In this document: piece after piece, positions 6,027 through 22,049 of the stretch
Position numbering within the stretch: position 1 is the first letter of the stretch
Layout: every line of letters starts with the position of its first letter
Origin: Sulfuritalea sp.
GTDB lineage: Bacteria > Pseudomonadota > Gammaproteobacteria > Burkholderiales > Rhodocyclaceae
Assembly: GCA_030680805.1 (NCBI GenBank)
Contig: JAUXUK010000061.1
Span: 1-59,309 of the forward strand
Direction of reading: 5' to 3'
Length of the DNA stretch: 59,309 nucleotides
Made by a program: the position numbers and the translations under genes
Notes under the pieces: model-generated
The model's database searches: none
Told to the model about the DNA's origin: nothing
Seen by the model: only the letters and a program-made list of their open reading frames with translations

Positions 6027-6743
6027 TCAGAAAATGCGGCGATCATTAAGCTGATCACGGATATATGCAGCGCACCCAGAAATCCAGCGCGCTAATGCCG
6101 CCTCATCAGTAATGCTTGCTGAATGGGAAGACGTTGGATTTTGCCAGGTAGCAGACATTGCGAAGTGAAAATGGGAAATTCCGCTTGTCGGAATCCCTTC
6201 ATCCTCAGCGGGAGTAGTAGCCCAAGGTGCTGGAATTATTACAGGTGCCCAAGGCACGCCTTCGCTGGATATCGCATCGGTCGCCGGTCCCTCGACCATC
6301 ATGTCAATATTCCAATGCGGCTGAGCATGAGCCGATGCTTGTCCCCGCGGATCCCATTCCGCGCGAAAACGCAAAGTGGAGCTTCTTGGTGAGGCGCCGA
6401 TGAATAGCTTCAAGCTAATATGCGTGATGAAGCAACTCCCTTTATCCCAGAGATAATCGACTGCTATTTCGAGCCAAGCACCGTCTGCTGCTTGCGGTTC
6501 CCGAAGACATAAGACCGGGAACAGGCCTTCCTGGTCGCGGGTAAATGTCTCAGCGCTCGCTATTCGTAAGCTTTGACCACTGGGAATATTTAGTTGAATT
6601 GCGCGCGCGTGGCTGACGTTGAGTAGTCTCTTGATGCCACCCGCTATTGTTCTTCCAAAATCCTTCTCACACTTAATCTTGAAACCAGCGGGCTTAGTTG
6701 CTACTTGCGTGGCCATCGCTGCGTTCCGACCGTTAAGGTTCAA
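6027..6743 (-). CDS. Hypothetical protein coupled to the adenine methyltransferase
   Basis: A 238-residue protein not recognised by family. It has an N-terminal basic stretch and a mixed central part (FTRDQEGLFPVLCLREPQAA, then WLEIAVDYLW), with no evident signal peptide or membrane segment. The frame starts at TTG 6743, whose bases overlap the TGA of the methyltransferase; ATG 6716 is the alternative start. The tight overlap implies translational coupling, so it probably serves the same system as the methyltransferase, for example as a restriction or specificity partner. No nuclease motif such as PD-(D/E)XK or HNH could be found by eye. Confidence 0.6.
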   Translation of the reverse strand: MNLNGRNAAMATQVATKPAGFKIKCEKDFGRTIAGGIKRLLNVSHARAIQLNIPSGQSLRIASAETFTRDQEGLFPVLCLREPQAADGAWLEIAVDYLWDKGSCFITHISLKLFIGASPRSSTLRFRAEWDPRGQASAHAQPHWNIDMMVEGPATDAISSEGVPWAPVIIPAPWATTPAEDEGIPTSGISHFHFAMSATWQNPTSSHSASITDEAALARWISGCAAYIRDQLNDRRIF

Positions 6744-9094
6744 CCCCTAAGCCTGGTAGCTTGGGAAAAAAGTTCACCAGTCAGCCGGTCTCGCAATTCA
6801 GCTGAATAAGCCGATGCTTTGCTCATTGCCGTACCGATTAGCGCCAATTCATCAACAAAAGCTGACAAGTCTTCGTTGGCCATATTAACGAATGGCATTC
6901 TGCCCATAAATCGGGCCGACAAGTTGAACTGCCCGCCGGCGAGATTGTTTGAGATAGCAGCAATAAGATGCTTCGCGATCTCGGATCCGAGAGCAGCGGC
7001 CGTCGCATATCCGATACGATCCTCATCTAGTTCTGGAACTTTTGGCGACCAAGCGTACCCCTGTACCACCACAAACTCGCCGGTGCTGTCCCAAGCGAAG
7101 GAGCCAGATGATCCAAAATATGTAGAAACCAGTTTTGGCGTCTTCTTCTCAAAAACCGTGCGGTTGCGAGTCAAGCCCCACCAATTTGCGACGTCTACGC
7201 CAGCCCGCTTCAGCAAAGCACCTCTGTTCGGCGCCAGAAACTCCTGAAGATAGACAGGAAGCTTATCCTCTAAGGCGTCTTCGGACACTATCTCCAAGCT
7301 TGGCGCGCCGTATGGGTAGAACACCCAATGACCTTCGGAAATGCAACCATCCGTTATTGATGCATTCACTATCGCCGGCCTGAAATATTTGCGCTCAGTT
7401 CGCGGTAGCTGTTTGAAGTTTTCTGCATTCAATAGAAACGCAGAGTTGAGCCCTGTGATTGCACCTTGGTTAATCCTGTACAGCTTACTTAAACGAGGCA
7501 GACTAGAGAACTCCGAGATGAGTCGTCTTGACTCTGCGGGGCGAGGAGCCCACGCAGACTCGGTATCGGCGATCTTGGGTTCCGTATAGATCGAGAAACC
7601 TTGCTGATTGATTTCACAAACATCATCGCCGGGCATGCGTCCCAGACTTCGTAGGGTACGCAGGGCCTGATCTGCCGCATTGCTTGTATGGTCGGCCCAA
7701 ACCATAAGCGTCGGCGGCCGTTGGTCGAGCGCAGTGTCGCTCCGCTTCGCTACGTAAAGGGAAACATCCACGGTCGCGGCATCGAAAATCGATTGGTTAC
7801 CAAGTCGCACAATAACGCGCCGATCGAGGTTCTCGTCAAGGCGGGCCCGTAACTTTGCGGCCGAATCGCCATCGAGGAGCGAAGCAGGAATGACTGCCCC
7901 CAATGTGCCGCCACGTGCAAGACAAGCTGATGCTTTGACCAAAAAAGCAAACGCAAGATCGGGCCTGATACCAGCCAAGTCGCCGAGAATATCTGCGAGC
8001 CGATCCCGTGCTGTCGCTGACAGCGATCCCCATGATGCATATGGTGGATTCATTAGGCAGATGCTAGTGTCGGATGGCCAGTCGGCGCTTAACGCATCTC
8101 GCTGCTCTATCTCAATGGTAAATCGGCTACCGTGCCGCGCAATCTCGGTTGCCATCCCAAACCGTGCCATGAGTATGGCGTGCGGGGAAATGTCGTATCC
8201 AATAAAGCGCGCGCGGCCTTGAAAGCCATTTAGATCCAACTGTCGCGCGCATTCGCGTAAGAACTCGCCGCTACCACAAGCTGCGTCGAGGATGACCAAT
8301 TCCTCTTTAGAAAGGAGTTCAGGCGTAAGGCACTGTTCCACTAGAGTTCGAACAAGAGGAGTTGGTGTGAAATATGCTCCACTGAAACGAGATTTTGAGC
8401 CAGTGACAATCAGGTCGTCTTCGCCCAGCAGACTCATTTGAGGAGAGATTGCGACGATATTGTGGGTCTCTTGGAAGATACGACCCATCGCGTGTCGAAG
8501 CATCAAGACAATATCGACGTGCTTCTCGCTAGCACGGGGACGCGCTAAATCTCCAACGATGCGGTCGCGTTGGATGGCGCCAATGCGCTGCCATGCTTCC
8601 TGACACTGCAGGCGGTCTCCCCATTGCAGGTCGCCAATCGAAGACTGGCTTCTTGTTAAGGACTCTTGTAGCACGTACAAAAAGGCTTCAAGGCCCTGTG
8701 CCCCATCAGGAAGTGCGGCGCGAATACGATTGTAGATTCCCACAGCGTGAGCCACGATTGACTGCTCACGGGGAGTGCGCGTGGAATCGAGATATTGTTG
8801 AAACGCCCTTAGATTATTTGTTACTTCTGCTACCGAGGATCGGAGTAGTTCTGGGCGATCCCATCGTAGGACTTCCACCCCGTCGGTCGTGACGCGCACG
8901 TAGTGGTCGACGTCGGCGGACCATGCAATATCCCTTCGACCGAAAGGTGGCACGAGTTCTTCGTCAATATCTAGGCAAAAGTTGCCCTTTGCGCCGTTTA
9001 GCATCACGAAGCGTTGCTCGTTTGAGCCATAGCGTAACGGGACGGGTAAATACCCAAGATGCGAACGCCATTCATTAATATGCTGAAGGTTCAT
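6740..9094 (-). CDS. Large N6-adenine DNA methyltransferase (Eco57I/TaqI-like)
   Basis: A 784-residue protein that should transfer a methyl group from S-adenosylmethionine to adenine N6 in DNA. Motif I is DAACGSGEFL (about residues 270-279), preceded by YFTPTPLVRTLV (motif X-like), and the catalytic motif IV is NPPY at 349-352. About 240 N-terminal residues are mostly helical and unassigned; the C-terminal 350 residues resemble target-recognition regions of type IIG/Eco57I-like enzymes. ATG 9094 was chosen because GGAGGA lies just upstream, rather than TTG 9139. It lies between a DNA-binding protein gene and an unknown coupled gene. No endonuclease motif was found, so it may be an orphan or defence methylase. 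Confidence 0.85.
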   Translation of the reverse strand: MNLQHINEWRSHLGYLPVPLRYGSNEQRFVMLNGAKGNFCLDIDEELVPPFGRRDIAWSADVDHYVRVTTDGVEVLRWDRPELLRSSVAEVTNNLRAFQQYLDSTRTPREQSIVAHAVGIYNRIRAALPDGAQGLEAFLYVLQESLTRSQSSIGDLQWGDRLQCQEAWQRIGAIQRDRIVGDLARPRASEKHVDIVLMLRHAMGRIFQETHNIVAISPQMSLLGEDDLIVTGSKSRFSGAYFTPTPLVRTLVEQCLTPELLSKEELVILDAACGSGEFLRECARQLDLNGFQGRARFIGYDISPHAILMARFGMATEIARHGSRFTIEIEQRDALSADWPSDTSICLMNPPYASWGSLSATARDRLADILGDLAGIRPDLAFAFLVKASACLARGGTLGAVIPASLLDGDSAAKLRARLDENLDRRVIVRLGNQSIFDAATVDVSLYVAKRSDTALDQRPPTLMVWADHTSNAADQALRTLRSLGRMPGDDVCEINQQGFSIYTEPKIADTESAWAPRPAESRRLISEFSSLPRLSKLYRINQGAITGLNSAFLLNAENFKQLPRTERKYFRPAIVNASITDGCISEGHWVFYPYGAPSLEIVSEDALEDKLPVYLQEFLAPNRGALLKRAGVDVANWWGLTRNRTVFEKKTPKLVSTYFGSSGSFAWDSTGEFVVVQGYAWSPKVPELDEDRIGYATAAALGSEIAKHLIAAISNNLAGGQFNLSARFMGRMPFVNMANEDLSAFVDELALIGTAMSKASAYSAELRDRLTGELFSQATRLRG

Positions 9095-9175
9095 GCTATG
9101 TCCTCCGCCTCTTGTTCTGACGCATAGCAACTGGGCCAAGTGCGAGAGAAAGCTGAGCTGATTCCTGTACGACGT

Positions 9176-11571: not shown

Positions 11572-11638
11572 TTGCGACGATAAGGCCGCTTCGCCGGAGC
11601 CCGGCAAAATGCGAGGAAGCTACATATCAGGTCCAGCT

Positions 11639-11667
11639 TTACTTTCTTCTATTTCATCTCGGTTAAG
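11639..11667 (+). promoter_or_regulatory. Shared promoter-like element, copy 1 (sigma-like operon)
   Basis: TTACTTT (11639-11645), nine bases, CATCTCGGTTAAG (11655-11667). The same two blocks with the same spacing occur before the ubiquitin-like operon at 16473-16501, while the bases between and around them differ. Taken as -35 TTACTT and -10 GTTAAG, the spacer is 17 bases, but the -10 is unlike the housekeeping sigma-70 box. It may be recognised by the sigma-like protein encoded just downstream. Confidence 0.65.
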
Positions 11668-11697
11668 GACCAGAAACGACTAATTGGGGAGGTAACC

Positions 11698-11769
11698 ATG
11701 ACCGCAGACCAGCTTCCGGAGAATGAAACCAATGCGCCAGCGCGATCCAAACCACGAAAAACGCCTTAA
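11698..11769 (+). CDS. Possible 23-residue leader peptide overlapping the sigma-like gene
   Basis: ATG 11698 follows a strong GGGGAGG and encodes a short polar peptide (MTADQLPENETNAPARSKPR then KTP) ending at TAA 11769. It runs out of frame over the start of the sigma-like gene at 11723. It could couple or attenuate translation of the operon, or mark an ancestral start lost by a frameshift. No homologue is known to me. Confidence 0.35.
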   Translation: MTADQLPENETNAPARSKPRKTP

Positions 11770-12451
11770 CCAACTGTGCTCAACGAGCCCTCAAGAGTGC
11801 AAACGCCAGATCGGGGCCCGTAAGTACACGGACGCCGATTATGTTGTGTCGGAGGTTCTCGCATCTTTAGTCCGCTTACGCTTTGGCAAGGAGACAGGAG
11901 TACTGGATGTCGCCACGGCGGAATTGCATCGTAGAGTAATCAAGACGGTGGAAATCCGTGTTTGGGGATTGGGCAAGTGGTATGGTCTCATGCGTAACGA
12001 CAGTGAAATAGTTGCCGAGGCGGCGCAATATTTTTGGGATATCTTTCTCAAAGATGAACAGCAGGTATGCAATGCCGAGGTTCGTTTCGCCGTCTATCTG
12101 AATGACCGACTCGACGACTTCAGGCGTCATCTTCTGACCCAGAAAAACTCGCAAAAGTCCGTCGACGATATAGGCGAGGTAGACGATGATGGAAGCGAAG
12201 GTGCATATATAGACGCAGTCGGGGATCCGACTGCCGAGACCCTGGAAGAGATTGCAGCTCGCGTACAAAAGTCGAAACATCTGACAAGCATTTTGGTGGC
12301 TTTGCCGCAAAAGCAGCGCAACGCCTTCTACTATCGCGTGGCCTTTGGCTATGATTGGAAGACCGTGGCAGAACTACTGAAGTGCTCAATACCTACCGCT
12401 CGAAGCTACGTGGCAAGTAGCATAGAGCAGCTTCAAGGAGCACTCGAATGA
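11723..12451 (+). CDS. Sigma-70-family-like regulator
   Basis: A 242-residue protein whose C-terminal 50 residues form a region-4-like helix-turn-helix (ALPQKQRNAFYYRVAFGYDW, then KTVAELLKCSIPTARSYVAS), as in ECF-type sigma factors. The upstream part has an acidic linker (GEVDDDGSEGAYIDAV) and a helical region that may correspond to region 2. ATG 11723 has CCGGAGA just before it; ATG 11732 is also possible. It is the first main gene of a three-gene operon, coupled by ATGA to the next gene. It may direct transcription from the duplicated element found before this operon and before the ubiquitin-like operon. Confidence 0.7.
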   Translation: MKPMRQRDPNHEKRLNQLCSTSPQECKRQIGARKYTDADYVVSEVLASLVRLRFGKETGVLDVATAELHRRVIKTVEIRVWGLGKWYGLMRNDSEIVAEAAQYFWDIFLKDEQQVCNAEVRFAVYLNDRLDDFRRHLLTQKNSQKSVDDIGEVDDDGSEGAYIDAVGDPTAETLEEIAARVQKSKHLTSILVALPQKQRNAFYYRVAFGYDWKTVAELLKCSIPTARSYVASSIEQLQGALE

Positions 12452-13065
12452 CGATCGATCGATCGCAAGACGTGGAACGCCTGATCGAAGATTTCATGAT
12501 GGATCATCCCAGTCCCGTCGCCGATGACTGGAAGTGTCTGATTGATGCGTACCCGCAGCATGCCAGTCTGATCGCTGACGCAGCACTGTTCAGATCGGGT
12601 ACCGATGACATTGATGGTGAGCAAGGCGATCTATCACCTGCAGGTCAAAGCGCGTTCAACAACACTATCAGTAAGGTACTGAACTCGGTGCATCAGACAC
12701 CGAGTCCATTACTCGCGGCCGCAAGTAAGCGTGTGGCCTCCATCCAAGGGCCGAGTGCCAAGAATATCGCTATAGAACTTGGCATCGGCCCCTATGGATC
12801 GTTGCTCAGCGGGGTCCTGGTCGGGCGAACGGTTGCGCCCAGGCGCGTGCTGGAAGCGTTGGCGCACAAGCTGCAGATGTCGGCTGCGATCCTCGCTGAA
12901 GTATTTCGACAATCATTTGCGTCGTCGACGGTGCCTGCCTTCAAGTCAACCGAAGGCAAGCCGCAGGTTTCGGTGCAACCTGTGACTTGGGACGACGCGG
13001 TCCGGGCCATGGACGTAGGACCTGAGGAAACTGCCAGGCTGCGTGAGTTCGCAGAAGAATCCTGA
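12448..13065 (+). CDS. XRE-like protein, possible repressor or anti-sigma partner
   Basis: A 205-residue protein with a low-complexity N-terminal half and a central segment (KNIAIELGIGPYGSLLSGVL then VGRTVAPRRVLEALAHKLQM) that resembles a Cro/CI-type helix-turn-helix with its following helices. It starts at ATG 12448, overlapping the sigma-like gene's TGA (ATGA), with AAGGAG upstream. The next gene starts one base after its stop and encodes an ImmA/IrrE-type protease. In ImmR/ImmA, DdrO/IrrE and CapH/CapP pairs such proteases cleave XRE repressors, which makes this protein the likely cleavage target. That role is inference. Confidence 0.6.
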   Translation: MTIDRSQDVERLIEDFMMDHPSPVADDWKCLIDAYPQHASLIADAALFRSGTDDIDGEQGDLSPAGQSAFNNTISKVLNSVHQTPSPLLAAASKRVASIQGPSAKNIAIELGIGPYGSLLSGVLVGRTVAPRRVLEALAHKLQMSAAILAEVFRQSFASSTVPAFKSTEGKPQVSVQPVTWDDAVRAMDVGPEETARLREFAEES

Positions 13066-13066
13066 A

Positions 13067-16000
13067 ATGAACCCATTTCAGCGCGCCCGGGAGGAAGCGG
13101 CCAAGCTTCGTCAAAAGCTACTTCTGGATCGAGCTGAACTGCCCGTCCATGCGACGGAACTCTTGGACCAAATTGAGCCTCGCCTCAATTTGGGTATTGA
13201 GGAAGTACCCGAGGGCAGCTCCGAGTTGGGCGGAGGGGATGCCTGCCTTCAGCGCACTGAGCGCTATATCTACGTGAAAAAGGGTTTGAGTCCCGAGAAG
13301 CATGCTCAGCTGGTGGCGCACGAACTTGGTCATTTCGACCTTGATGCCAATAAGACGCCGATGACGGTCGCCACATTGAAATCCTTGGCGTGCCTTGACG
13401 GCACGCCTGCGGTGGTCAAAGTGGAGTCTTACGGTGCACGCGAGCGGCAGGAACTGCAGGCCAATGTGTTCGGCCGAGAGCTGCTGCTTCCGCGCGCCCT
13501 TGCTCGTGATCTCTTTGCCAAGGGACTCGGAGCACGAAAAGTTGCTCACGACCTCGGTCTGTCTGTTGATCTGGTTCAGCAGCAAATGCTTGACGCAGTA
13601 TTGCTTCCGCAGAGCATGGAAGAGGCGATTAAGGAGCTCCCTCAACCAAGCGGCGATCAGAGCGCAGCCGCAAAAGCTGAGGAACGCTTTGTCAACGTCG
13701 TAGCCGGTCCCGGGACAGGAAAGACGTCCACGCTGATTCATCGCGTCAAATACCTCATCGAAAAGAAACACGTGGATCCTAGCCATATCCTCGTGCTGAC
13801 GTTTACCAACAAGGCGGCATTCGAACTCGTTGAGCGCCTCCGCCACGCCGGTATAGAACGAGCCGCCGACATCTGGGCTGGTACGTTCCACGCCTTCGGA
13901 CTGGAGTTTCTTCGAAAGTACCACCAGTGTTTCGATCTTGAGAGTGACATCTCCGTTGCCGACAGGCTGAATGCGGTAATGCTTCTATGTCGAGAGATTC
14001 CGAACATCGACCTAAAGCACTATCTGCGCATTCAGGACCCCTACGAGTGGCTGGGTGGCGTAGTGCAGGCCATCCATCGCCTTAAGGAGGAGATGGTGTC
14101 GCCTGAGGAGTACCGACGCCGGTTGCCTAGCCTAGCCTGCAAGGATGATGACTTGCGCGCAAGGCGCGAAGATGTCGCGATGCTCTACGACAGTTATGAG
14201 AAGGCCTTGCGTCGGGCAGGAACAGTCGACTTTGTCGATCTGGTGGCCTTGCCGGCACGGGCCATTCGCGAGGATCGGGCGCGCTACTCGGAACTCGCGG
14301 ACAAATTCCAATACGTCCTAGTGGATGAGTACCAGGATGTCACGGAAGCCATGGTCGCACTCGTAAAGCAGCTTGCCCATAAGGCGAAGTCCCTGTGGGT
14401 TGTTGGCGACGTGCGACAGGCCATTCATCATTGGCGCGGCGCGTCGGTCAAGAGTCTTATAGTGTTCGAGAAGACGTTTCAGGACCAGGCCAGCAGCACG
14501 CGAAGTCGAATTCGCAAGTATCCGCTACAGATCAATCGACGCAGTTCCCAGGAGATTCTGGATCTCGTGACGAATGCCGGTCGTCAGCATGTTCTCGAAG
14601 CCCATTTGCCTCTCGACGAAATGACCGCCTCTGCCGGTAGTTGTGGTGATGGCCCGATTCTCGTGTCATGTGCCAATTCAACGGCCATTCCGTCAGTTGT
14701 CGAGACCGCGATCAGGAAACTGGTCACGCAAGGAACGCCTTATGGCGAACAAGCCGTTCTTTGCCGCCGGTCGGCCGACCTGGAGCACGTAGCCAGGCAC
14801 CTGCGTGCGGCAGGTATTCCGGTTCTACACCTGGGAGAACTTGCACAACGTCCGGAAATCAAGACTCTCTTGTGTCTGATGCAGTTGTTGGTCGAACGGC
14901 AGCCACGCGCGCTGATCGGCTTGGCGACGCAACCCAGGCTTCGAGTGCCATTGGCGGACGTCAAGAATCTCATGGCCTGCGCCGATGAAGATATCAAGTT
15001 TCAGCGAGGTCGCTGGCTAAAGAAGAACCTGCCAGTCACGCTCTCAAAGGATGCGCTTAGCGCCATCGCAACTCTGTCTCAGATGCTTCGTGGCCATTCG
15101 CGCCACTCTACGCCTTGGTCGTTTATCTGCGATATGGTTCTCGAGCACCGAGTCTGCCTCCCGCCACCCGAGGACACTTCAATCGCCTCCCAAGTCACCA
15201 GAATTGCACTCTGGCAATTCGCTTACTCGGTAAGGACCGGCGATGGTGATCGAAGGATTTCGGACCTTTCGCGCTACCTCATACGGCAACAGCTACGCCG
15301 GCGGATCGGCGAGACCTATGCCGAGCGGGATCTGCCGCCCGAGGCATCTTCACTCGACGCGGTTCGCATTCAAACCGTTCATGGCAGCAAGGGTCTTGAG
15401 TATTGGGCGGTTCATGTCGCGTTTATTGACGACAGCTCATATGGAGGCGACGCTCCGACATGGAGCCCGGAAGATAATGTGCTTGACGTCGTCCCTCCAG
15501 AAGCCTTGGGAAGCAAGGAGAGCGATCACCAATTCGAGCAATCAGTCGAACGCAATAACCTATTTTACGTGGCCTTATCGCGAGCCAAGCGGCGTCTCCT
15601 GCTGTACGAGGATGCGGAATGGTCTGATCGCAACCGTCCGCCGCAACTCAATCATCAGCCACTTACCTACCGCGTCGTTCGCGTTGGCGGGGATTCGACA
15701 ACAGTGACTCCTACCGCGTCGGCAGGTGCCATTGCAGCGACCTCAGGGCCGATAACCTTCGCGGAGTTTGAGGTGTTCGCGCGGTGTCCGCTGGAACATC
15801 ATTACCGGTTCCGCCTCGGGTTGAAACGTGAGCAGGAACTCGATGCTCCGCTGCGGGCCCGTCTCGCAATTATGTCAACCTTGGAACGTGCTGCCAAGGA
15901 GGGTAACACCCAAAATTATGGCGAAGCGCTTGTGGAGGCTTGGGACCAGTACCGCCTGCCGAAAAAAGAAATGGACCAGCGACTGTGGCAGGATTCAGAC

Positions 16001-16408
16001 ATAGTTGTTCAGCGAGGCTTGAGGCTGTTAAAAGACGCCGGAGGCCACTACACCGAGCCTCGTACCTCAGTGGGTGGGCTTCAAGTCCAGTTGCCGTGGA
16101 TGTTGGCTTCAACGGGTCGAAATGGGACGCCATATATGCTCCTGCGGATTGGCCCCCATGGAGCGCAGAACCTCATAACGCTTCTTCGACCAATGCTGAA
16201 TGGACTTTCTGGCAGCAGAGCTACATCCGTAGGAGTGGCCACCCTGCTTGCGCCGAAACTTGATACAGCGACGCAAAGCGGAAATGTGACACGGACGAAG
16301 GCCTATTCCGCTGCCAAGCGCTATCTCGCCGGCGACCTTGCTCCGGCCCCGGGCCGTGCCTGTAGGTACTGCGCCTATCTGACAATTTGTCCCACCAATC
16401 CATCGTAA
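13067..16408 (+). CDS. ImmA/IrrE metalloprotease-UvrD-like helicase fusion with Cys cluster
   Basis: A 1113-residue fusion. Residues about 1-180 form an ImmA/IrrE-type zinc protease: AHELGH has the HExxH at 85-89, and RQELQANVFGRELLLP supplies the third ligand region. From about 195 it is a superfamily 1A helicase with Walker A GPGTGKT (214-220), GTFHAFG, Walker B YVLVDEYQD, VHGSKGLEYWAVHVA and motif VI YVALSRAKRRL. The last 200 residues (FEVFARCPLEHHYRFRLG and a final cluster Cys1099, Cys1102, Cys1108) resemble the iron-sulfur PD-(D/E)XK domain of AddB/Cas4, but no catalytic D...(D/E)XK was seen. ATG 13067 was chosen. A DNA-sensing protease/helicase role is inferred. Confidence 0.85.
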   Translation: MNPFQRAREEAAKLRQKLLLDRAELPVHATELLDQIEPRLNLGIEEVPEGSSELGGGDACLQRTERYIYVKKGLSPEKHAQLVAHELGHFDLDANKTPMTVATLKSLACLDGTPAVVKVESYGARERQELQANVFGRELLLPRALARDLFAKGLGARKVAHDLGLSVDLVQQQMLDAVLLPQSMEEAIKELPQPSGDQSAAAKAEERFVNVVAGPGTGKTSTLIHRVKYLIEKKHVDPSHILVLTFTNKAAFELVERLRHAGIERAADIWAGTFHAFGLEFLRKYHQCFDLESDISVADRLNAVMLLCREIPNIDLKHYLRIQDPYEWLGGVVQAIHRLKEEMVSPEEYRRRLPSLACKDDDLRARREDVAMLYDSYEKALRRAGTVDFVDLVALPARAIREDRARYSELADKFQYVLVDEYQDVTEAMVALVKQLAHKAKSLWVVGDVRQAIHHWRGASVKSLIVFEKTFQDQASSTRSRIRKYPLQINRRSSQEILDLVTNAGRQHVLEAHLPLDEMTASAGSCGDGPILVSCANSTAIPSVVETAIRKLVTQGTPYGEQAVLCRRSADLEHVARHLRAAGIPVLHLGELAQRPEIKTLLCLMQLLVERQPRALIGLATQPRLRVPLADVKNLMACADEDIKFQRGRWLKKNLPVTLSKDALSAIATLSQMLRGHSRHSTPWSFICDMVLEHRVCLPPPEDTSIASQVTRIALWQFAYSVRTGDGDRRISDLSRYLIRQQLRRRIGETYAERDLPPEASSLDAVRIQTVHGSKGLEYWAVHVAFIDDSSYGGDAPTWSPEDNVLDVVPPEALGSKESDHQFEQSVERNNLFYVALSRAKRRLLLYEDAEWSDRNRPPQLNHQPLTYRVVRVGGDSTTVTPTASAGAIAATSGPITFAEFEVFARCPLEHHYRFRLGLKREQELDAPLRARLAIMSTLERAAKEGNTQNYGEALVEAWDQYRLPKKEMDQRLWQDSDIVVQRGLRLLKDAGGHYTEPRTSVGGLQVQLPWMLASTGRNGTPYMLLRIGPHGAQNLITLLRPMLNGLSGSRATSVGVATLLAPKLDTATQSGNVTRTKAYSAAKRYLAGDLAPAPGRACRYCAYLTICPTNPS

Positions 16409-16472
16409 TCTTCTGACGGTCCGTTCAACTCATGGATCGCCCTCTGTCTTCTAGGCAAGCGATAAGGTGGTT

Positions 16473-16501
16473 TTACTTTTTCAGTTGCCATCTCGGTTAA
16501 G
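16473..16501 (+). promoter_or_regulatory. Shared promoter-like element, copy 2 (ubiquitin-like operon)
   Basis: TTACTTT (16473-16479), nine bases, CATCTCGGTTAAG (16489-16501), lying 49 bases before the ubiquitin-like gene. It is identical in both blocks and in spacing to the element before the sigma-like operon. This suggests the two operons are switched on together. Confidence 0.65.
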
Positions 16502-16549
16502 TCAGTAGAAGGCCGTGTTGCTCACGGTCAGAAAACTGAGGACACAGAT

Positions 16550-17035
16550 ATGACAATCCAAATCTTTCTCCAATCGGAACTCCTTCAGGACATCGAGGCC
16601 CTTGAACTGCCGAGGGGCGTGACCGGGAAGGAGCTGCGTCAAGCAGTCCTGGCCAGGCTGCCAGCAGGCACTGACGTCGCGAATATGCATTTCTTCATCG
16701 AAGACGACGATGACGATCATCCGCTGGACAAGCGCAATGAGATTCCGGATGGGCTGCGGGTTCATCTTCACCGCCAAAAAGGGATCGATGTGGTGGTCCG
16801 GTATGCCGGTCGCGATGTCCGTCGCACGTTTCGTCCGAGCGCGACGGTTGGTCGCGTAAAGCGTTGGGCCACCGATGAGATGGGAATCACGCCGTCTGAC
16901 GGCGCGGAACTCATGCTGCAGTTGAGTGGAACTGACATTCGCCCCGACACGGATGTCCACATCGGAGCTCTGGTCCATTCGCCGGCAAAGTCGATCACTT
17001 TCGACTTGGTACCGTCTCCGCGCGTCAACGGCTGA
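16550..17035 (+). CDS. bilA: Tandem ubiquitin-like protein (BilA-like)
   Basis: A 161-residue protein made of two beta-grasp ubiquitin-like domains of about 78 residues. The first begins MTIQIFLQSELLQDIEALEL and contains the acidic loop EDDDDDHPLDKRNEIPDG; the second begins IDVVVRYAGRDVRRTFRPSA and contains GAELMLQLSGTDIRPD. It would be activated by the E1-like and E2-like proteins encoded downstream and attached to target proteins; in Bil (bacterial ISG15-like) systems the target is a phage structural protein. It ends in Arg-Val-Asn-Gly, so a C-terminal Gly is present without a long extension. It is the first gene of a tightly packed operon, with GAGGA before ATG 16550. Confidence 0.85.
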   Translation: MTIQIFLQSELLQDIEALELPRGVTGKELRQAVLARLPAGTDVANMHFFIEDDDDDHPLDKRNEIPDGLRVHLHRQKGIDVVVRYAGRDVRRTFRPSATVGRVKRWATDEMGITPSDGAELMLQLSGTDIRPDTDVHIGALVHSPAKSITFDLVPSPRVNG

Positions 17036-17045
17036 GGAGGAGGCC

Positions 17046-17501
17046 GTGGACTCTGGTCAGAACCTTCTTGAGGAGCACCTGCGAAGTGGTAGCTTTCTCG
17101 CAGGTGCCGCAAAGGGCCGCTGGCGCCTAGTGGAGTTCCGCTGGCCGGTGGTGATTGTCGAGGTGACCGCCCGGGATGGGCGGCTCTTTACTCTTCGCAT
17201 TGACTGCACGGGTTATCCCGACTTAGCGCCAACCGGGACGCTCTGGGACGTGGACGCCAATCGCCAGCTTCCAGCTGAACTTTGGCCACGCGGTGGTCGC
17301 GTTTCCCTTGTCTTCAATCCATCGTGGAAAGGGGGGGCGGCACTCTATCTACCATGCGACCGGCAGAGCATCGAAGGCCATGCAAATTGGCTATCGGAGC
17401 ATTCGTGGCTCATTTGGAACCCGTCGAAAGGTCTGCTGCAATATGTGCAGGCAGTCTGCGAAACGCTGCAAAGCCATGAACTCCAATTGCATGCGGCTTG
17501 A
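17046..17501 (+). CDS. bilB: E2-like conjugating protein (BilB-like)
   Basis: A 151-residue E2/UBC-fold protein. The core strands (RLVEFRWPVVIVEVTARDGR, then LFTLRIDCTGYPDLAPTG) and the segment ALYLPCDRQSIEGHANW fit bacterial E2-like proteins; Cys104 in LPCDR is the likely thioester site. It starts at GTG 17046 directly behind a strong GAGGAGGAGG, 10 bases after the ubiquitin-like gene. It should accept the ubiquitin-like protein from the E1-like enzyme and pass it to a target. Its 3' end overlaps the JAB peptidase gene. Confidence 0.8.
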   Translation: MDSGQNLLEEHLRSGSFLAGAAKGRWRLVEFRWPVVIVEVTARDGRLFTLRIDCTGYPDLAPTGTLWDVDANRQLPAELWPRGGRVSLVFNPSWKGGAALYLPCDRQSIEGHANWLSEHSWLIWNPSKGLLQYVQAVCETLQSHELQLHAA

Positions 17502-17964
17502 GTTTGCACAGGGCGTCTGGACCGGGCTCATGGATGACCTGCGTCGGCGTGGGCGGGGGCAGCGCGAGTCAGGGGCGTTCCTGCTCGGAGAGATTCGCGA
17601 TACCGGGCGGTTTGTGCATACCTGGCTACCCTATGACGAACTCGATCCAGGTTCCTTGGCCTATGCCTATGTCAGGCTGAGCAGCGATGCGTTCACGAAG
17701 CTATGGGCAATCTGCGCAGATCACGGATTGCAGGTCGTTGCCGATGTGCACACCCATCCCCTCGGCCCGGGACAGAGTCCGTCCGACCAGGCCAATCCGA
17801 TGATCGGGCTGCCAGGACATGTGGCAATTATCGTTCCTCGATTTGCGGCCGGGAACGTGCGCCCCGAGAACGTCAGCGTCAATACCTACCTAGGGGAAAA
17901 ACGATGGCAAAACGCGTTCGGCGCCGCTGCCGCCGAACTGATCAAAATAAGTGGGGGGTCGTAA
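17491..17964 (+). CDS. bilD: JAB/JAMM deubiquitinase-like peptidase (BilD-like)
   Basis: A 157-residue zinc isopeptidase of the JAB1/MPN/Mov34 family. The JAMM ligands are visible: Glu27 in ESGAFLLG, His87 and His89 in VHTHP, and Ser96/Asp99 in QSPSDQ. It would release or mature the ubiquitin-like protein. ATG 17491 was chosen; ATG 17476 in the same frame would lengthen the overlap with the E2-like gene. The stop codon TAA shares a base with the ATG of the E1-like gene, so the products are probably made in fixed ratio. The peptidase precedes the E1 here. Confidence 0.85.
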   Translation: MRLEFAQGVWTGLMDDLRRRGRGQRESGAFLLGEIRDTGRFVHTWLPYDELDPGSLAYAYVRLSSDAFTKLWAICADHGLQVVADVHTHPLGPGQSPSDQANPMIGLPGHVAIIVPRFAAGNVRPENVSVNTYLGEKRWQNAFGAAAAELIKISGGS

Positions 17965-19253
17965 TGCTGGCTGAATCATTTCATCGCTTGACCAAGGTCC
18001 TGCTCGATAGTGGCGAGGCGGCGACAATGGAGGATGCTGTACGATCCTTCAGGAATTATGGTGTGCGGATCGTGCTGGGGCGTTCGGTTGCAGACGATCC
18101 TATGGCGCAGGTAATCGCGCTGACCGCCATCAACTCAGCGTCAAGAAGCTTTTTGGGCAATGTCGAGGTCGTGGCATCTCCCAATATGCCGCTTTTGGTT
18201 CGAGGTTTTGAGGGTGCGTCTATGGGCGATTTCTTGAGCTGGCTTGGAATCGAGGGGAAGCCCAGTGACCCGCAGGCGACATGGCCGACCATCGCAGTCG
18301 GCGACAGTGAGCTTGAGCATGCTGGAAATGGGGCTCTTCATCCGTGGGCAGATGGCTGGCGGTATGGCTTGGGGCAACCGCATGTCAAGTCCGGGAAGTT
18401 CTTTCCCCCCGCAGGTGTTGCTGCAGCTGGTCTTGCGGTTAGCGATGCGTTTTCCATGCTCCGAGGAGACAATCGATACGCGGGACGTCGAAACGTTGCT
18501 CTATCTCTTTGGTCCGCTTCGCCCGTAGAGAATTGGAAAGATGAGCCGTCCTGCATTACTTCGGTCCCGTCCGTATGGTTGGTGGGACTCGGCCACCTAG
18601 GGCAGGCGTACGCCTGGACGCTTGGGTTCATGGCGCCGCATGAAGGCGCTGTGGTGTTTTGTCAGGACGTTGACTGCGTTACAGAGTCCACCGTTTTCAC
18701 ATCTCTGTTGTCGACAAAAGCCGATATATATCGATCCAAAGCGCGCTTGACGGCCTCTTGGTTGGAGGCAAGAGGCTACGAGACCAGGCTTGTCGAGCGG
18801 AGGTTCGACGAGCACCAGCGTGTTGGTCTTGGGGAGCCCCGAATTGCGTGCTTCGGAGTAGACAACACATCGGCACGCCGCGCAATCGAGGGGGCTGGCT
18901 TCCGGTTCGTAGTCGATGCCGGGTTAGGTGCTGGGTATCGTGACTTCCGGGCAATTCGAGTCCGTACCTTTCCAGGTCCATCAAAGGCGGCTGCAATTTG
19001 GGCTAACGCCGACGTTCATAACAGTATTGAAAGTGCCCCCGCCTACAAGGCTCTCCTTGCTGCAGGTGCCGATCCGTGTGGTGTAACCATTCTCGCGACT
19101 CGCGCCGTCGGAGCCCCGTTTGTCGGATGCGTTGCCGCCGCGCACACAGTTGCCGAGCTTATGCGAAATCAGCTTGGCTTTTCGACCCATGGGTACTTGG
19201 ATTTGAATCTGCGAGATCCGCAAGCCATTGAGGCGGCATGCGCCTTCGAATAA
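17964..19253 (+). CDS. bilC: E1-like activating enzyme (BilC-like, ThiF fold)
   Basis: A 429-residue protein with a C-terminal ThiF/MoeB-type adenylation domain: VWLVGLGHLGQA (about 205-216) is the nucleotide-binding glycine loop and CFGVDNTSARRAIEG (about 296-310) carries the conserved Asp and Arg. Cys372 in ADPCGV is a candidate for the thioester cysteine. The 190 N-terminal residues are a family-specific extension. It should adenylate the C-terminus of the tandem ubiquitin-like protein and hand it to the E2-like protein. The start ATG overlaps the peptidase stop (TAATG). Confidence 0.85.
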   Translation: MLAESFHRLTKVLLDSGEAATMEDAVRSFRNYGVRIVLGRSVADDPMAQVIALTAINSASRSFLGNVEVVASPNMPLLVRGFEGASMGDFLSWLGIEGKPSDPQATWPTIAVGDSELEHAGNGALHPWADGWRYGLGQPHVKSGKFFPPAGVAAAGLAVSDAFSMLRGDNRYAGRRNVALSLWSASPVENWKDEPSCITSVPSVWLVGLGHLGQAYAWTLGFMAPHEGAVVFCQDVDCVTESTVFTSLLSTKADIYRSKARLTASWLEARGYETRLVERRFDEHQRVGLGEPRIACFGVDNTSARRAIEGAGFRFVVDAGLGAGYRDFRAIRVRTFPGPSKAAAIWANADVHNSIESAPAYKALLAAGADPCGVTILATRAVGAPFVGCVAAAHTVAELMRNQLGFSTHGYLDLNLRDPQAIEAACAFE

Positions 19254-19282
19254 CGACAACCTTTGTAATTGGAGATCAATCT

Positions 19283-19609
19283 ATGTACGAATGGCTTATT
19301 ACCTGGTTTCTATCCCGGCCAACCCGTATCGTTCATGTCGGTAATTCGCTTTCCCGCGCAGGGATGTTCCTGATCGTCGCTGGACTGCTTGGGCGCGTAG
19401 CGACGATCGGGGTTTCGGCGACTAAGAGTATGAGCAGAATTGAGACTGGGGTTCTGTTACTTTCGGACCTCTACCCAACGGTGCCGACTTGGTGGATACC
19501 GGAGTCAATCATCGGTTATGGCCTGAGCATTATTCTGGTAATTGCAGGTCTGATTGTTGTTCAGACTGGACGAGAGATGACGCGAGCACTTGGCTCACAC
19601 GATTACTAA
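19283..19609 (+). CDS. Small two-helix membrane protein appended to the Bil operon
   Basis: A 108-residue protein with two strongly hydrophobic segments (AGMFLIVAGLLGRVATIGVS and IIGYGLSIILVIAGLIVVQT), a short basic N-terminus and a charged tail. ATG 19283 has GGAGA upstream, and the gene begins 29 bases after the E1-like stop on the same strand, so it is probably part of the operon. It is not one of the four standard Bil components. It may be an effector, a sensor or an unrelated passenger; no family was recognised. Confidence 0.6.
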   Translation: MYEWLITWFLSRPTRIVHVGNSLSRAGMFLIVAGLLGRVATIGVSATKSMSRIETGVLLLSDLYPTVPTWWIPESIIGYGLSIILVIAGLIVVQTGREMTRALGSHDY

Positions 19610-20693: not shown

Positions 20694-22049
20694 CTAAATT
20701 TCGCCACTTTCAATAAGTCGGGTCAGTGTTGATATGTCGACTCCGAAGTTAACTTCACGCTCGATCTCGACATGTTGATTTGAACGTTTCGGAGCTTCGC
20801 CCCCGAAAGACATGTAGCCCACCGTGAATGCTCCGGCCGCCGGTTCTTCTCTTCGACGGGCGAATTTTGGCCGGATGATCTGCTTCTTGTATGCGCCTTC
20901 GGCAAACAGGATCTTGGCACGCAACGCCTCAAAGCTGTATCCCCTGCCCAGACGGTCCATGATCCGCAACAGCCCGTTCAGGCATTCGGTATAGGCATTG
21001 GTGACCGGATGATCGAAATACGCCAAGATGTACGGCTGCCAGTTTCGCCAGGCGCGGATCAGATCAGAGAAGGCATCCTTGACGTCAGGGGTGACAGCCC
21101 TATCCCAGGCCGCAAACCTCGCCAAGGCCTCTTTGGGTGTCTTGGCGTCGTAGATTTTGAAGAAGTCTTCCTTGAGCCGGTAGGCTCGCCCCAGTTCGGG
21201 GTAATTATTCAGCCAGCCGGATAGCTTGAGCGCGTCCTGATCGGTCAAGTCATGCTCGCGCTTCAGCATCACAAACCGGTCGTGCATGAGTCCGCGACGC
21301 TGTTTGGGCGTCAGCGACTCACGATAGCTTTTGCGAACCCGCTCAAAGGCTTCGTTGGCCATTTTCAAGACGTGGAACTTGTCGATGACGATACGGGCCT
21401 GGGGCATCACCGCTTCAACGGCGTCCTTGTAGGGCATCCACATGTCCATTGCCACGTATTGCACCTGCTCATGCCCATCCAGTCCGGACAGGTAGCGCAG
21501 GATCGTTTCCTTGTTCCGGTTCGGCAGGAGCTCAACGATGGTGTTGTTCTGGATATTGGCGATGACGCCGCGCGGCCTGACCAAGTGGATTTCATCGATA
21601 CCCATCCACTTGGGCGTTTCGAAGCGGATCGTCTTTTCGAGTTCGTTGATGTAATCGCGAAAGATCGAGCGGACAGACTTTTCGTCGATACCGACCTCAT
21701 CCGCAATGCTGGCAAAGGTGCGCTTGATTGCTTGCTTGCCAATCCATTCAATCAGGCGGGATGTCATCGGTCGACGGGCATCCACGACCGGCAGGGGCTC
21801 ATAGAAGGTTTTGGAGCAGGCCCGGCAGCGAAAACGACGTGTATCCACGTAAATTCCAACTCGCTTGCCGTGGCTGGGTAGATCTCGGACCAGTTGCTCG
21901 CGGCGTCCGAAGCCGACGATGCTGTCGGACCGGCAATGCACACATGCGGTCAGCGGAGCCTTGACCTCGGCTTTGACGTGGTAGTCGTGATCGTCATGCT
22001 CAACGTGTGTGACGTGATAGACGGGCAGGTTGAGGATGTTGATGGGCAC
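20694..22049 (-). mobile_element. ISL3-family insertion sequence, transposase gene
   Basis: A 451-residue transposase: N-terminal zinc-finger part (ACVHCRSDSIVGFG, FRCRACSKTFYE), helix-turn-helix (RTFASIADEVGIDEKSVRSI), then the DDE core with MGIDEIHLVRPRG, AMDMWMPYKDAVEAVMPQAR, IVIDKFHVLKMANEAFERVR and a C-terminal YTECLNGLLRIMDRLGRGYS. This is the ISL3 family and appears intact. It starts with GTG 22049. The exact ends are not clear: imperfect GGCT-type ends near 20668 and 22063 are possible and no target duplication was found. It lies between the cut RES gene and the last integron cassette genes. Confidence 0.85.

What the first reader, a model, noticed from the sequence alone, without database searches (positions are those of the whole stretch)
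11639..19609. Two co-regulated operons: sigma-like/XRE/protease-helicase module next to a Bil ubiquitin-like system
Operon 1 (sigma-like, XRE-like, ImmA/IrrE-UvrD fusion) and operon 2 (tandem Ubl, E2, JAB, E1, small membrane protein) are adjacent, co-oriented and preceded by the same bipartite element. In characterised CapP/CapH, ImmA/ImmR and IrrE/DdrO pairs, a metalloprotease cleaves an XRE repressor after DNA damage. By analogy, a helicase-coupled protease sensing phage or damaged DNA could free the sigma-like factor and switch on conjugation. This would be an inducible Bil defence system with a built-in sensor.
Basis: partly seen in the sequence, partly recalled or inferred. Interest (0 to 1): 0.92.

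Follow-up and report, generated by a model that had tools for sequence, protein, structure and literature searches.

The report
Sigma-factor switch for bacterial ubiquitin-like defence
A bacterium's ubiquitin-like anti-phage gene set sits next to a three-gene control module (a dedicated sigma factor, a small partner protein and a protease fused to a DNA helicase), and relatives in several phyla repeat both this pairing and the matching promoter-like signals, which points to a switch that turns such systems on.

Summary
Operon 1 (two-domain sigma factor, helical partner "mid", ImmA/IrrE-UvrD fusion with a nuclease-dead Fe-S-type tail) precedes a Bil operon; both follow TTTACTTT-N9-CATCTCGGTTAAG, which has no third site in the assembly at up to 3 mismatches. 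Of 29 distinct judgeable module loci found by mid or fusion alone, 27 have Bil (9) or the related Bub system (18) beside them, including 5 of 5 in a hold-out sample. A -35/-10-like element, T[TA]CCG-N16-CGAT, lies before the Ubl gene in 32 of 41 loci. Where it could be defined, 31 of 32 loci have a second copy: before the sigma gene (mostly Bil) or inside it, about 180 nt before its end (mostly Bub). The element follows the module's phylogeny across payloads. Best reading: a sigma-driven controller of Bil and Bub, resembling CapH/CapP but acting by activation. That sig reads the element, that mid restrains sig and is the protease's substrate, and that DNA ends or ssDNA are the signal are inferred. 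Papers searched show no description, but key Bil and Bub papers were not held.

The parts
11638..11667 (+). Bipartite element copy 1 (TTTACTTT-N9-CATCTCGGTTAAG), promoter-like, before operon 1
   Evidence: 0 of 100 shuffles; 2 sites in own genome. The -10-like part TCGGTTAA matches the family's GCGATTAA at 6 of 8 letters (compared by eye); the -35-like part departs from T[TA]CCG
11723..12451 (+). sig: two-domain sigma factor (regions 2 and 4)
   Evidence: Pfam Sigma70_r4_2 E 4.2e-7; 17 of 20 family members match it at E up to 1, best 2.6e-8; profile against PDB: sigma-H E 7e-8 over the second half, FliA E 2e-6 over both domains; model pLDDT 71 matches sigma H at E 3e-4, region 4 alone at rmsd 1.5
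12448..13065 (+). mid: small all-helical partner (candidate anti-sigma factor and protease substrate; XRE-like label weak)
   Evidence: family A2, 21 members with a YPEY..EL N-terminal motif and S.K...KP tail as consensus; no significant Pfam or PDB match; AF2 pLDDT 71
13067..16408 (+). fusion: Peptidase_M78 (ImmA/IrrE) - UvrD helicase - degenerate PD-(D/E)XK domain with four conserved Cys; GTG 13043 is an alternative start
   Evidence: Pfam M78 8e-10, UvrD 2e-60, PDDEXK_1 2e-7; HE.GH, Walker A residues, DE.QD and C915/C1107/C1110/C1116 invariant in 18; catalytic DxK motif lost
16472..16501 (+). Bipartite element copy 2, before the Bil operon; ATG of the Ubl gene 49 nt downstream
16550..17035 (+). 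Ubl, tandem ubiquitin-like protein (BilA)
   Evidence: PADLOC PDLC03844 E 1.4e-48
17046..17501 (+). E2-like protein (BilB, DUF7665)
   Evidence: PADLOC PDLC03845 E 1e-55; Pfam DUF7665 E 2.9e-62; start inferred from SD + GTG
17476..17964 (+). JAB/JAMM deubiquitinase-like protein (PADLOC BilC); start uncertain
   Evidence: PADLOC PDLC03846 E 7.8e-60; Prok-JAB E 1.1e-6
17964..19253 (+). E1-like protein (PADLOC BilD)
   Evidence: PADLOC PDLC03847 E 2.6e-145; start read
19238..19609 (+). small membrane protein with two hydrophobic peaks, no convincing relative beside the other loci
   Evidence: no Pfam or PADLOC hit

Best explanation
The three-gene module is a dedicated controller of bacterial ubiquitin-like conjugation systems. 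Shown by sequence and comparison: (a) sig-mid-fusion is a conserved unit whose neighbour is nearly always Bil or Bub; (b) a -35/-10-like element sits before the Ubl operon and again before sig or inside sig shortly ahead of mid; (c) the element co-varies with the module even between different payloads; (d) the fusion keeps protease, helicase and Fe-S-type residues but has lost the nuclease DxK motif. Inferred: sig is the sigma factor that reads this element; at rest mid holds it inactive. When the UvrD-like motor and its nuclease-dead end engage exposed DNA ends or ssDNA (phage DNA, repair products), the M78 domain cleaves mid, freeing sig to switch on the Ubl operon and, as feedback, mid plus fusion (with sig itself in most Bil loci).
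For: Neighbourhoods: fusion-based genome scan 8 of 9 judgeable loci with Bil or Bub; mid-based search of own class and one order 15 of 16; hold-out phylum sample 5 of 5. One locus is shared by the first two sets: 27 of 29 distinct. Bil to module: 6 of 7 strong Bil loci, Fisher p 4e-9. Element: pattern within 100 nt after the fusion stop in 32 of 41 loci (one a duplicate) against about 0.03 per 100 nt over whole loci; 31 distinct sites with spacing 16 (23), 17 (6) or 15 (2). Second copy: before sig in 12 of 13 testable Bil loci at p at most 0.01, best match at the same spacing in all 12 (window's own entry is circular); inside sig 177-189 nt before its stop in 17 of 31 loci, 12 of the 17 at synonymous-shuffle p at most 0.01; 31 of 32 loci have a second copy at up to 3 of 16 mismatches, against 6 further sites elsewhere in 672 kb on both strands; internal copy in 3 of 4 hold-out loci with an element. 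Element distance follows fusion distance between different payloads (rho 0.53, p 0.003, 28 loci), and the Bil/Bub labels need at least 5 changes on the fusion tree. G545 holds only two sites of its element at up to 1 mismatch, both at its module. Sigma fold. M78 part: CapP E 0.0016 and IrrE E 0.025 in the PDB. PprI and CapP are ssDNA-activated M78 proteases (PMC10904395, abstract and passages).
Against: No experiment. Mid has no detectable anti-sigma homology; the protease-mid pairing rests on gene order and analogy. L035 (Roseiflexus, distant) has the module without a Ubl system found nearby; L146 is decayed. L161 has Bil without the module on its 6.5 kb contig. The fixed pattern alone appears near sig in only 14 of 41 loci, against roughly 6 expected. 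8 of 41 loci have no element by the pattern and were not testable. In Bub loci the copy before sig is found in 2 of 18. Five of the 17 internal copies have shuffle p 0.04-0.11. L021 and the hold-out L169 lack a second copy. Sig is a weak profile match (30-48 bits) in L035, L155, L156, L157, L159 and L160 and split in L013. Elements also differ more between than within payloads (5.3 against 3.8 of 16). In one search the top row by E-value is a 'CAP REPEAT' chain without any single significant stretch, ahead of CapP.
Confidence: 0.65

Rival explanations
1. CapH/CapP-like derepression: mid is a DNA-binding repressor that occupies the bipartite element, the M78 domain destroys it, and the sigma-like protein is only an accessory.
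For: M78 protease next to a small HTH-compatible protein, as in CapH+CapP and DdrO/IrrE; weak HTH_31 hit and a weak HTH fold row.
Against: The two boxes are neither inverted nor direct repeats of each other (by eye) and are spaced like a -35/-10. A sigma-gene match accompanies mid in the module loci surveyed, though weak in some and split in one. No member of the mid family has a significant Pfam HTH match.
Confidence: 0.2
2. The fusion is not the sensor but a working part of the defence (a helicase acting with the Ubl system, or a conjugation target); sig and mid regulate through another signal.
For: UvrD-family proteins are defence effectors elsewhere (a GajB model is the best PADLOC hit, E 2e-57).
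Against: By gene order the fusion ends the sig-mid operon, with the element between it and the Ubl genes, and it is shared by two different Ubl systems. The nuclease DxK motif is absent in 41 of 41 aligned full-length members.
Confidence: 0.1
3. Hitch-hiking: independent neighbours in defence islands with no functional link.
For: Defence genes cluster on plasmids and islands in general (established knowledge).
Against: 27 of 29 distinct loci with Bil or Bub and shared co-varying elements.
Confidence: 0.03

Closest known systems
CapH + CapP (M78 protease + HTH repressor controlling immune operons, Bub among them)
   Same: M78/IrrE-type protease with HExGH, encoded beside a small putative regulatory partner and upstream of an immune operon. 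Of the 5 opened plasmid Bil loci without any part of the module, 3 have an HTH + ImmA/IrrE pair beside Bil (L014, L015, L019)
   Different: Protease fused to a UvrD helicase and a dead nuclease; a sigma factor is the third gene; bipartite -35/-10-like element; control by activation (inferred)
CapK + CapS and CapW/BrxR controllers (PMC13373217)
   Same: DNA-damage-responsive controllers next to Bub, Bil or CBASS operons
   Different: No GHKL/STAS or WYL match in sig, mid or fusion; sigma-based
IrrE(PprI)/DdrO and ImmA/ImmR
   Same: M78 protease paired with a small regulator; PprI is ssDNA-activated (PMC10904395)
   Different: Helicase fusion, sigma factor, local target
ECF-type sigma/anti-sigma pairs (sigma H, sigma E/RseA, AlgU/MucA)
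   Same: Two-domain sigma with its own promoter class, overlapping downstream gene as candidate inhibitor
   Different: Soluble M78-helicase instead of membrane proteolysis (general knowledge); inhibitor has no known anti-sigma family
Bil (BilABCD) and Bub operons
   Same: The payloads; the window's is a full Bil operon
   Different: The text read here (PMC13373217) names CapW, CapHP and CapKS as controllers, not this module

Membership tests
Bil (BilABCD) | Four adjacent genes: tandem Ubl, E2, JAB peptidase, E1 | tested here: met
   PADLOC models E 1.4e-48 to 2.6e-145 in order
Bil (BilABCD) | E2 CEHH residues and JAMM motif | tested here: inconclusive
   C, E, H in place and a later H two positions off the CEHH numbering of PMC11354881; HTH-x6-SPSD in the JAB protein; read by eye
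Bil (BilABCD) | Conjugates Ubl to phage proteins and protects | not testable with these tools
   needs phage assays
CapH + CapP controller | M78 protease with HExxH | tested here: met
   HExGH in 46 of 47 fusions, the other being split (L156); Pfam M78 in 18 of 18; CapP E 0.0016
CapH + CapP controller | HTH repressor as partner | tested here: inconclusive
   HTH_31 E 0.03 in the window protein, 1 of 21 members; weak fold row
CapH + CapP controller | Two-gene system with stand-alone protease, no sigma factor | tested here: not met
   helicase fusion plus a sigma-gene match in the module loci; L007 has sig and mid without the fusion
Sigma-70 family, ECF-like | Regions 2 and 4 | tested here: met
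   region 4 in 17 of 20 at E up to 1; FliA aligned over both domains; fold. Region 2 is not among the Pfam families listed
Sigma-70 family, ECF-like | Cognate promoter at own operon and target operon | tested here: inconclusive
   matching elements at both places; transcription from them not tested
Anti-sigma factor (for mid) | Binds and inhibits the adjacent sigma | not testable with these tools
   no similarity to a known anti-sigma domain reported
AddAB/RecB-type helicase-nuclease | Active PD-(D/E)XK site | tested here: not met
   DYKTG of neighbouring AddB-like proteins (2 of 3 comparators, L010 and L022; L019 did not show it) has no D/E-x-K counterpart in 41 of 41 aligned fusions; motif names recalled
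CapK+CapS or CapW | GHKL/STAS or WYL domains | tested here: not met
   not among the Pfam hits listed for sig, mid or fusion members

The most novel reading that the evidence does not exclude
A fourth class of immune-operon controller: a dedicated alternative sigma factor, held by mid and released by a helicase-coupled M78 protease that reads DNA ends, working as a portable switch exchanged between Bil and Bub and found in Pseudomonadota, Cyanobacteria, Chloroflexota and Verrucomicrobiota, with a feedback promoter that in Bub loci lies inside the sigma gene itself.
Probability: 0.6. Interest if true: 0.87.

Novelty: new variant of a known kind. Interest (0 to 1): 0.78.

Why it matters
How bacteria keep ubiquitin-like conjugation off until it is needed is open, and Bub has not been shown to protect against phage (PMC13373217). 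This module gives a testable answer: its promoter-like letters are in hand, it predicts which transcripts rise together, and it would use a sigma factor (positive control) where the three controllers described in PMC13373217 use repressors. The helicase fused to the protease suggests what is sensed. Repeated exchange between Bil and Bub implies that both answer the same alarm.

Tried and rejected
Single-sequence tblastn of sig and mid in plasmids found nothing; profiles and gene neighbourhoods were needed. A first element pattern had a mis-typed core and is not used; one search replaces it. A generic 30-nt within-locus match worked for most Bil loci (own partner best of 41 in the window, L005, L008, L032, L151, L155, L156, L159, L160 and in L009) but for none of the Bub loci, which led to the internal copy. 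The small membrane protein was tested as a conserved part and rejected. Weak mid hits (G603, G475, G428, G768:C16, the second G759 hit) and weak E1 hits (G603, G588, G688) were not opened; E1 fragments L162 and L164 were dropped from the Bil count, and the G301 match (L163) gave no Bil hit. Not judgeable: L033, L036 and L153 (contig ends). The genome searches scored at most 8 (mid) or 4 (E1) candidates per genome, so prevalences are lower bounds. Of 36 plasmid records with a Bil E1, 15 were opened: 9 with the module (L013's sig is split by an IS256), 1 with sig and mid but no fusion (L007), 3 CapH/CapP-like, 1 XRE-peptidase-like (L016), 1 without any (L017). Three further kinds of plasmid, not opened, have the fusion match 2.1-2.5 kb from E1 by coordinates. 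The pdb_via library was not available.

Full report
What is there. The window holds two co-oriented gene sets. Operon 1 is sig (sigma factor), mid (small helical protein, overlapping sig's stop) and a fusion of an M78/IrrE peptidase, a UvrD helicase and a C-terminal PD-(D/E)XK/Fe-S-type domain. Operon 2 is a complete Bil set in the order Ubl, E2, JAB, E1 (PADLOC E 1.4e-48 to 2.6e-145) plus a small membrane ORF without a convincing relative in the other loci searched. The bipartite element TTTACTTT-N9-CATCTCGGTTAAG stands before both; it has two matches at up to three mismatches in the window, none in 100 shuffles, and no other site in the 86%-complete assembly.

The module is a unit. Profiles of mid (21 members), sig (20) and the fusion (18) were built from the window and plasmid loci. 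All 11 genomes searched that were reached through true fusion relatives also have a mid match; two of these loci are from Chloroflexi (L032, L035) and one from an Opitutaceae genome (L038). A cyanobacterial plasmid carries the module too (L025).

Its neighbours are Bil or Bub. Three samples were chosen by mid or fusion, not by payload. Fusion scan: 11 loci with mid among 80, 2 cut by contig ends, 8 of 9 judgeable with Bil (2) or Bub (6). Mid search of the own class (369 genomes) and of an order sample (397 genomes): 17 strong loci including the window, 1 cut, 15 of 16 with Bil (7) or Bub (8); two of the Bub loci (L148, L149) are near-copies. Hold-out phylum sample (398 genomes), run after the models and the element pattern were fixed: 5 of 5 new loci with Bub. 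One locus is shared by the first two samples (L039 = L147), so 27 of 29 distinct loci, 9 Bil and 18 Bub; in some (L031, L165) the Bub proteins match only weakly. The exceptions are L035, a distant Roseiflexus module, and L146, a decayed copy. Ten plasmid loci chosen by the fusion add 8 with adjacent Bub-like genes (one divergent, L024), one with a Bil Ubl remnant (L009) and one with IS66 genes downstream and a Bub Ubl match about 6 kb away (L023).

From the Bil side, 7 strong Bil loci (E below 1e-100) occur in the 397 order genomes and 6 have the module within about 6 kb; genome-level Fisher p is 4e-9. The seventh (L161) has what look like Xre/RES toxin-antitoxin genes upstream (named by eye). 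Of 15 opened plasmid Bil records (of 36), 9 have the module, 1 sig and mid only, 3 a CapH/CapP-like pair, 1 an XRE-peptidase-like gene and 1 none of these. So the module looks like an alternative to CapH/CapP, on small numbers.

The promoter-like elements. Comparing the DNA before sig with the DNA before the Ubl gene shows shared bipartite elements with locus-specific letters. The pattern T[TA]CCG-N-CGAT/CGAC/CGCT occurs within 100 nt after the fusion stop in 32 of 41 loci (one a duplicate), against a background of 0.03 per 100 nt over whole loci; spacing is 16 in 23, 17 in 6 and 15 in 2 of 31 distinct sites. In two further loci (L027, L166) a -35-like box lies in the last codons of the fusion (by eye). 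The same fixed pattern near sig is less striking, 14 of 41 against roughly 6 expected, but each locus's own letters do better: taking the Ubl-side boxes of the 33 loci that have them and searching near sig, 12 of 13 Bil loci have a second copy at p at most 0.01 (200 shuffles), best at unchanged spacing in all 12 (shifts by one cost one mismatch); 2 of 18 Bub loci and 1 of 2 others do. The window's entry is circular there, because its boxes were defined from its own two copies.

The second copy in most other loci is inside sig: 17 of 31 loci have it at 3 or fewer of 16 mismatches, always 177-189 nt before sig's stop, that is shortly ahead of mid. When sig is rewritten with synonymous codons from the same locus, a match as good arises at p at most 0.01 in 12 of the 17 and at 0.04-0.11 in the other five, so it is not only the conserved YRxxL..AI peptide; several of these loci are close relatives and not independent. 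Altogether 31 of 32 loci have a second copy in one of the two places, against 6 further sites elsewhere in 672 kb on both strands. Of the four hold-out loci with an element, three have the internal copy and one (L169) has none. Bil loci thus mostly place the whole module under the element, Bub loci only mid and the fusion.

The element belongs to the module. On a tree of 41 fusions (quick method, SH-aLRT support) the Bil and Bub labels need at least five changes. Element distance follows fusion distance also between loci with different payloads (rho 0.53, permutation p 0.003, 28 loci), although elements also differ more between than within payloads (5.3 against 3.8 of 16). L157 (Bub) shares the TCGCT-type -10 with its Bil sisters L155 and L159. 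In G545 a genome-wide search with its own element found two sites at up to one mismatch, both at the module; the same pattern gave one or two chance-like hits away from the module in three of nine other genomes.

The proteins. The sig profile finds ECF sigma factors and FliA in the PDB (best E 7e-8); the model (pLDDT 71) matches sigma H at E 3e-4 and further sigma factors, with low whole-chain TM but region 4 at rmsd 1.5. Mid finds nothing significant by sequence or fold, so calling it an anti-sigma factor is an inference from position and logic. In the PDB the M78 part matches CapP (E 0.0016) and IrrE (0.025), behind a 'CAP REPEAT' chain that has no single significant stretch. All 43 fusions that reach the C-terminus keep its C..C....C tail. 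At the position of DYKTG in two neighbouring AddB-like proteins, 41 of 41 aligned full-length fusions have no D/E-x-K; two loose matches elsewhere in the tail (L025, L034) are not at that position. A DNA-engaging but non-cutting end would suit a sensor.

Mechanism. Shown: unit, neighbours, elements, co-variation, residues. Inferred: sig reads the element; mid restrains sig; the fusion's motor detects DNA ends or ssDNA and its protease removes mid; the Ubl system and the module are then transcribed. Precedent for ssDNA-activated M78 proteases: PprI and CapP (PMC10904395, abstract and passages; PMC13373217, abstract, passages and Discussion).

Literature. PMC13373217 names CapW/BrxR, CapH+CapP and CapK+CapS as damage-responsive controllers, with 219 of 544 Bub operons next to CapW or CapHP and 59 next to CapKS; a sigma/helicase module does not appear in the parts seen. 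Searches listed no paper that by title or abstract start describes it (listings capped, at most 20 rows each). PMC1779556, PMC8195603, PMC5512222 and PMC11354881 were checked by passages. Chambers 2024, Hor 2024, Gong 2025, Ye 2026 and Burroughs 2011 are not held, so an earlier mention there, or lumping with CapHP, cannot be excluded.

Noticed in passing
window 11698-11769: An ATG with a strong SD-like GGGGAGG opens a 23-codon ORF that overlaps the start of sig (11723) in another frame; sig's own ATG lacks an evident SD. Leader peptide, translational coupling or frameshift unknown.
   Followed up: partly
window from about 28000: G+C rises from about 0.53-0.58 to 0.61-0.67; the module lies in the lower-GC stretch with an N6-methylase gene (6740-9139) and an ISL3 transposase (20694-22049), consistent with an acquired island.
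   Followed up: partly
L013 10580-15305, L018 10483-14288, L021 14175-17776; also L008 17788-19239, further away: DNA repair exonuclease + large ATPase gene pairs (SbcCD-like by annotation) recur downstream of Bil and Bub loci that carry the module.
   Followed up: no
L010 5709-7585, L022 4726-6568: DUF6088 + AbiEii-type genes directly precede sig in two Bub loci, possibly in one operon with it.
   Followed up: no
L013 1515-3561: An IS256 element splits sig in a Sphingorhabdus plasmid while the fusion and Bil genes still match their models.
   Followed up: no
L035 2704-7697: A distant Roseiflexus module (sig, mid, M78-UvrD) has no Bil or Bub match nearby; it may show the ancestral use or another target.
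   Followed up: partly
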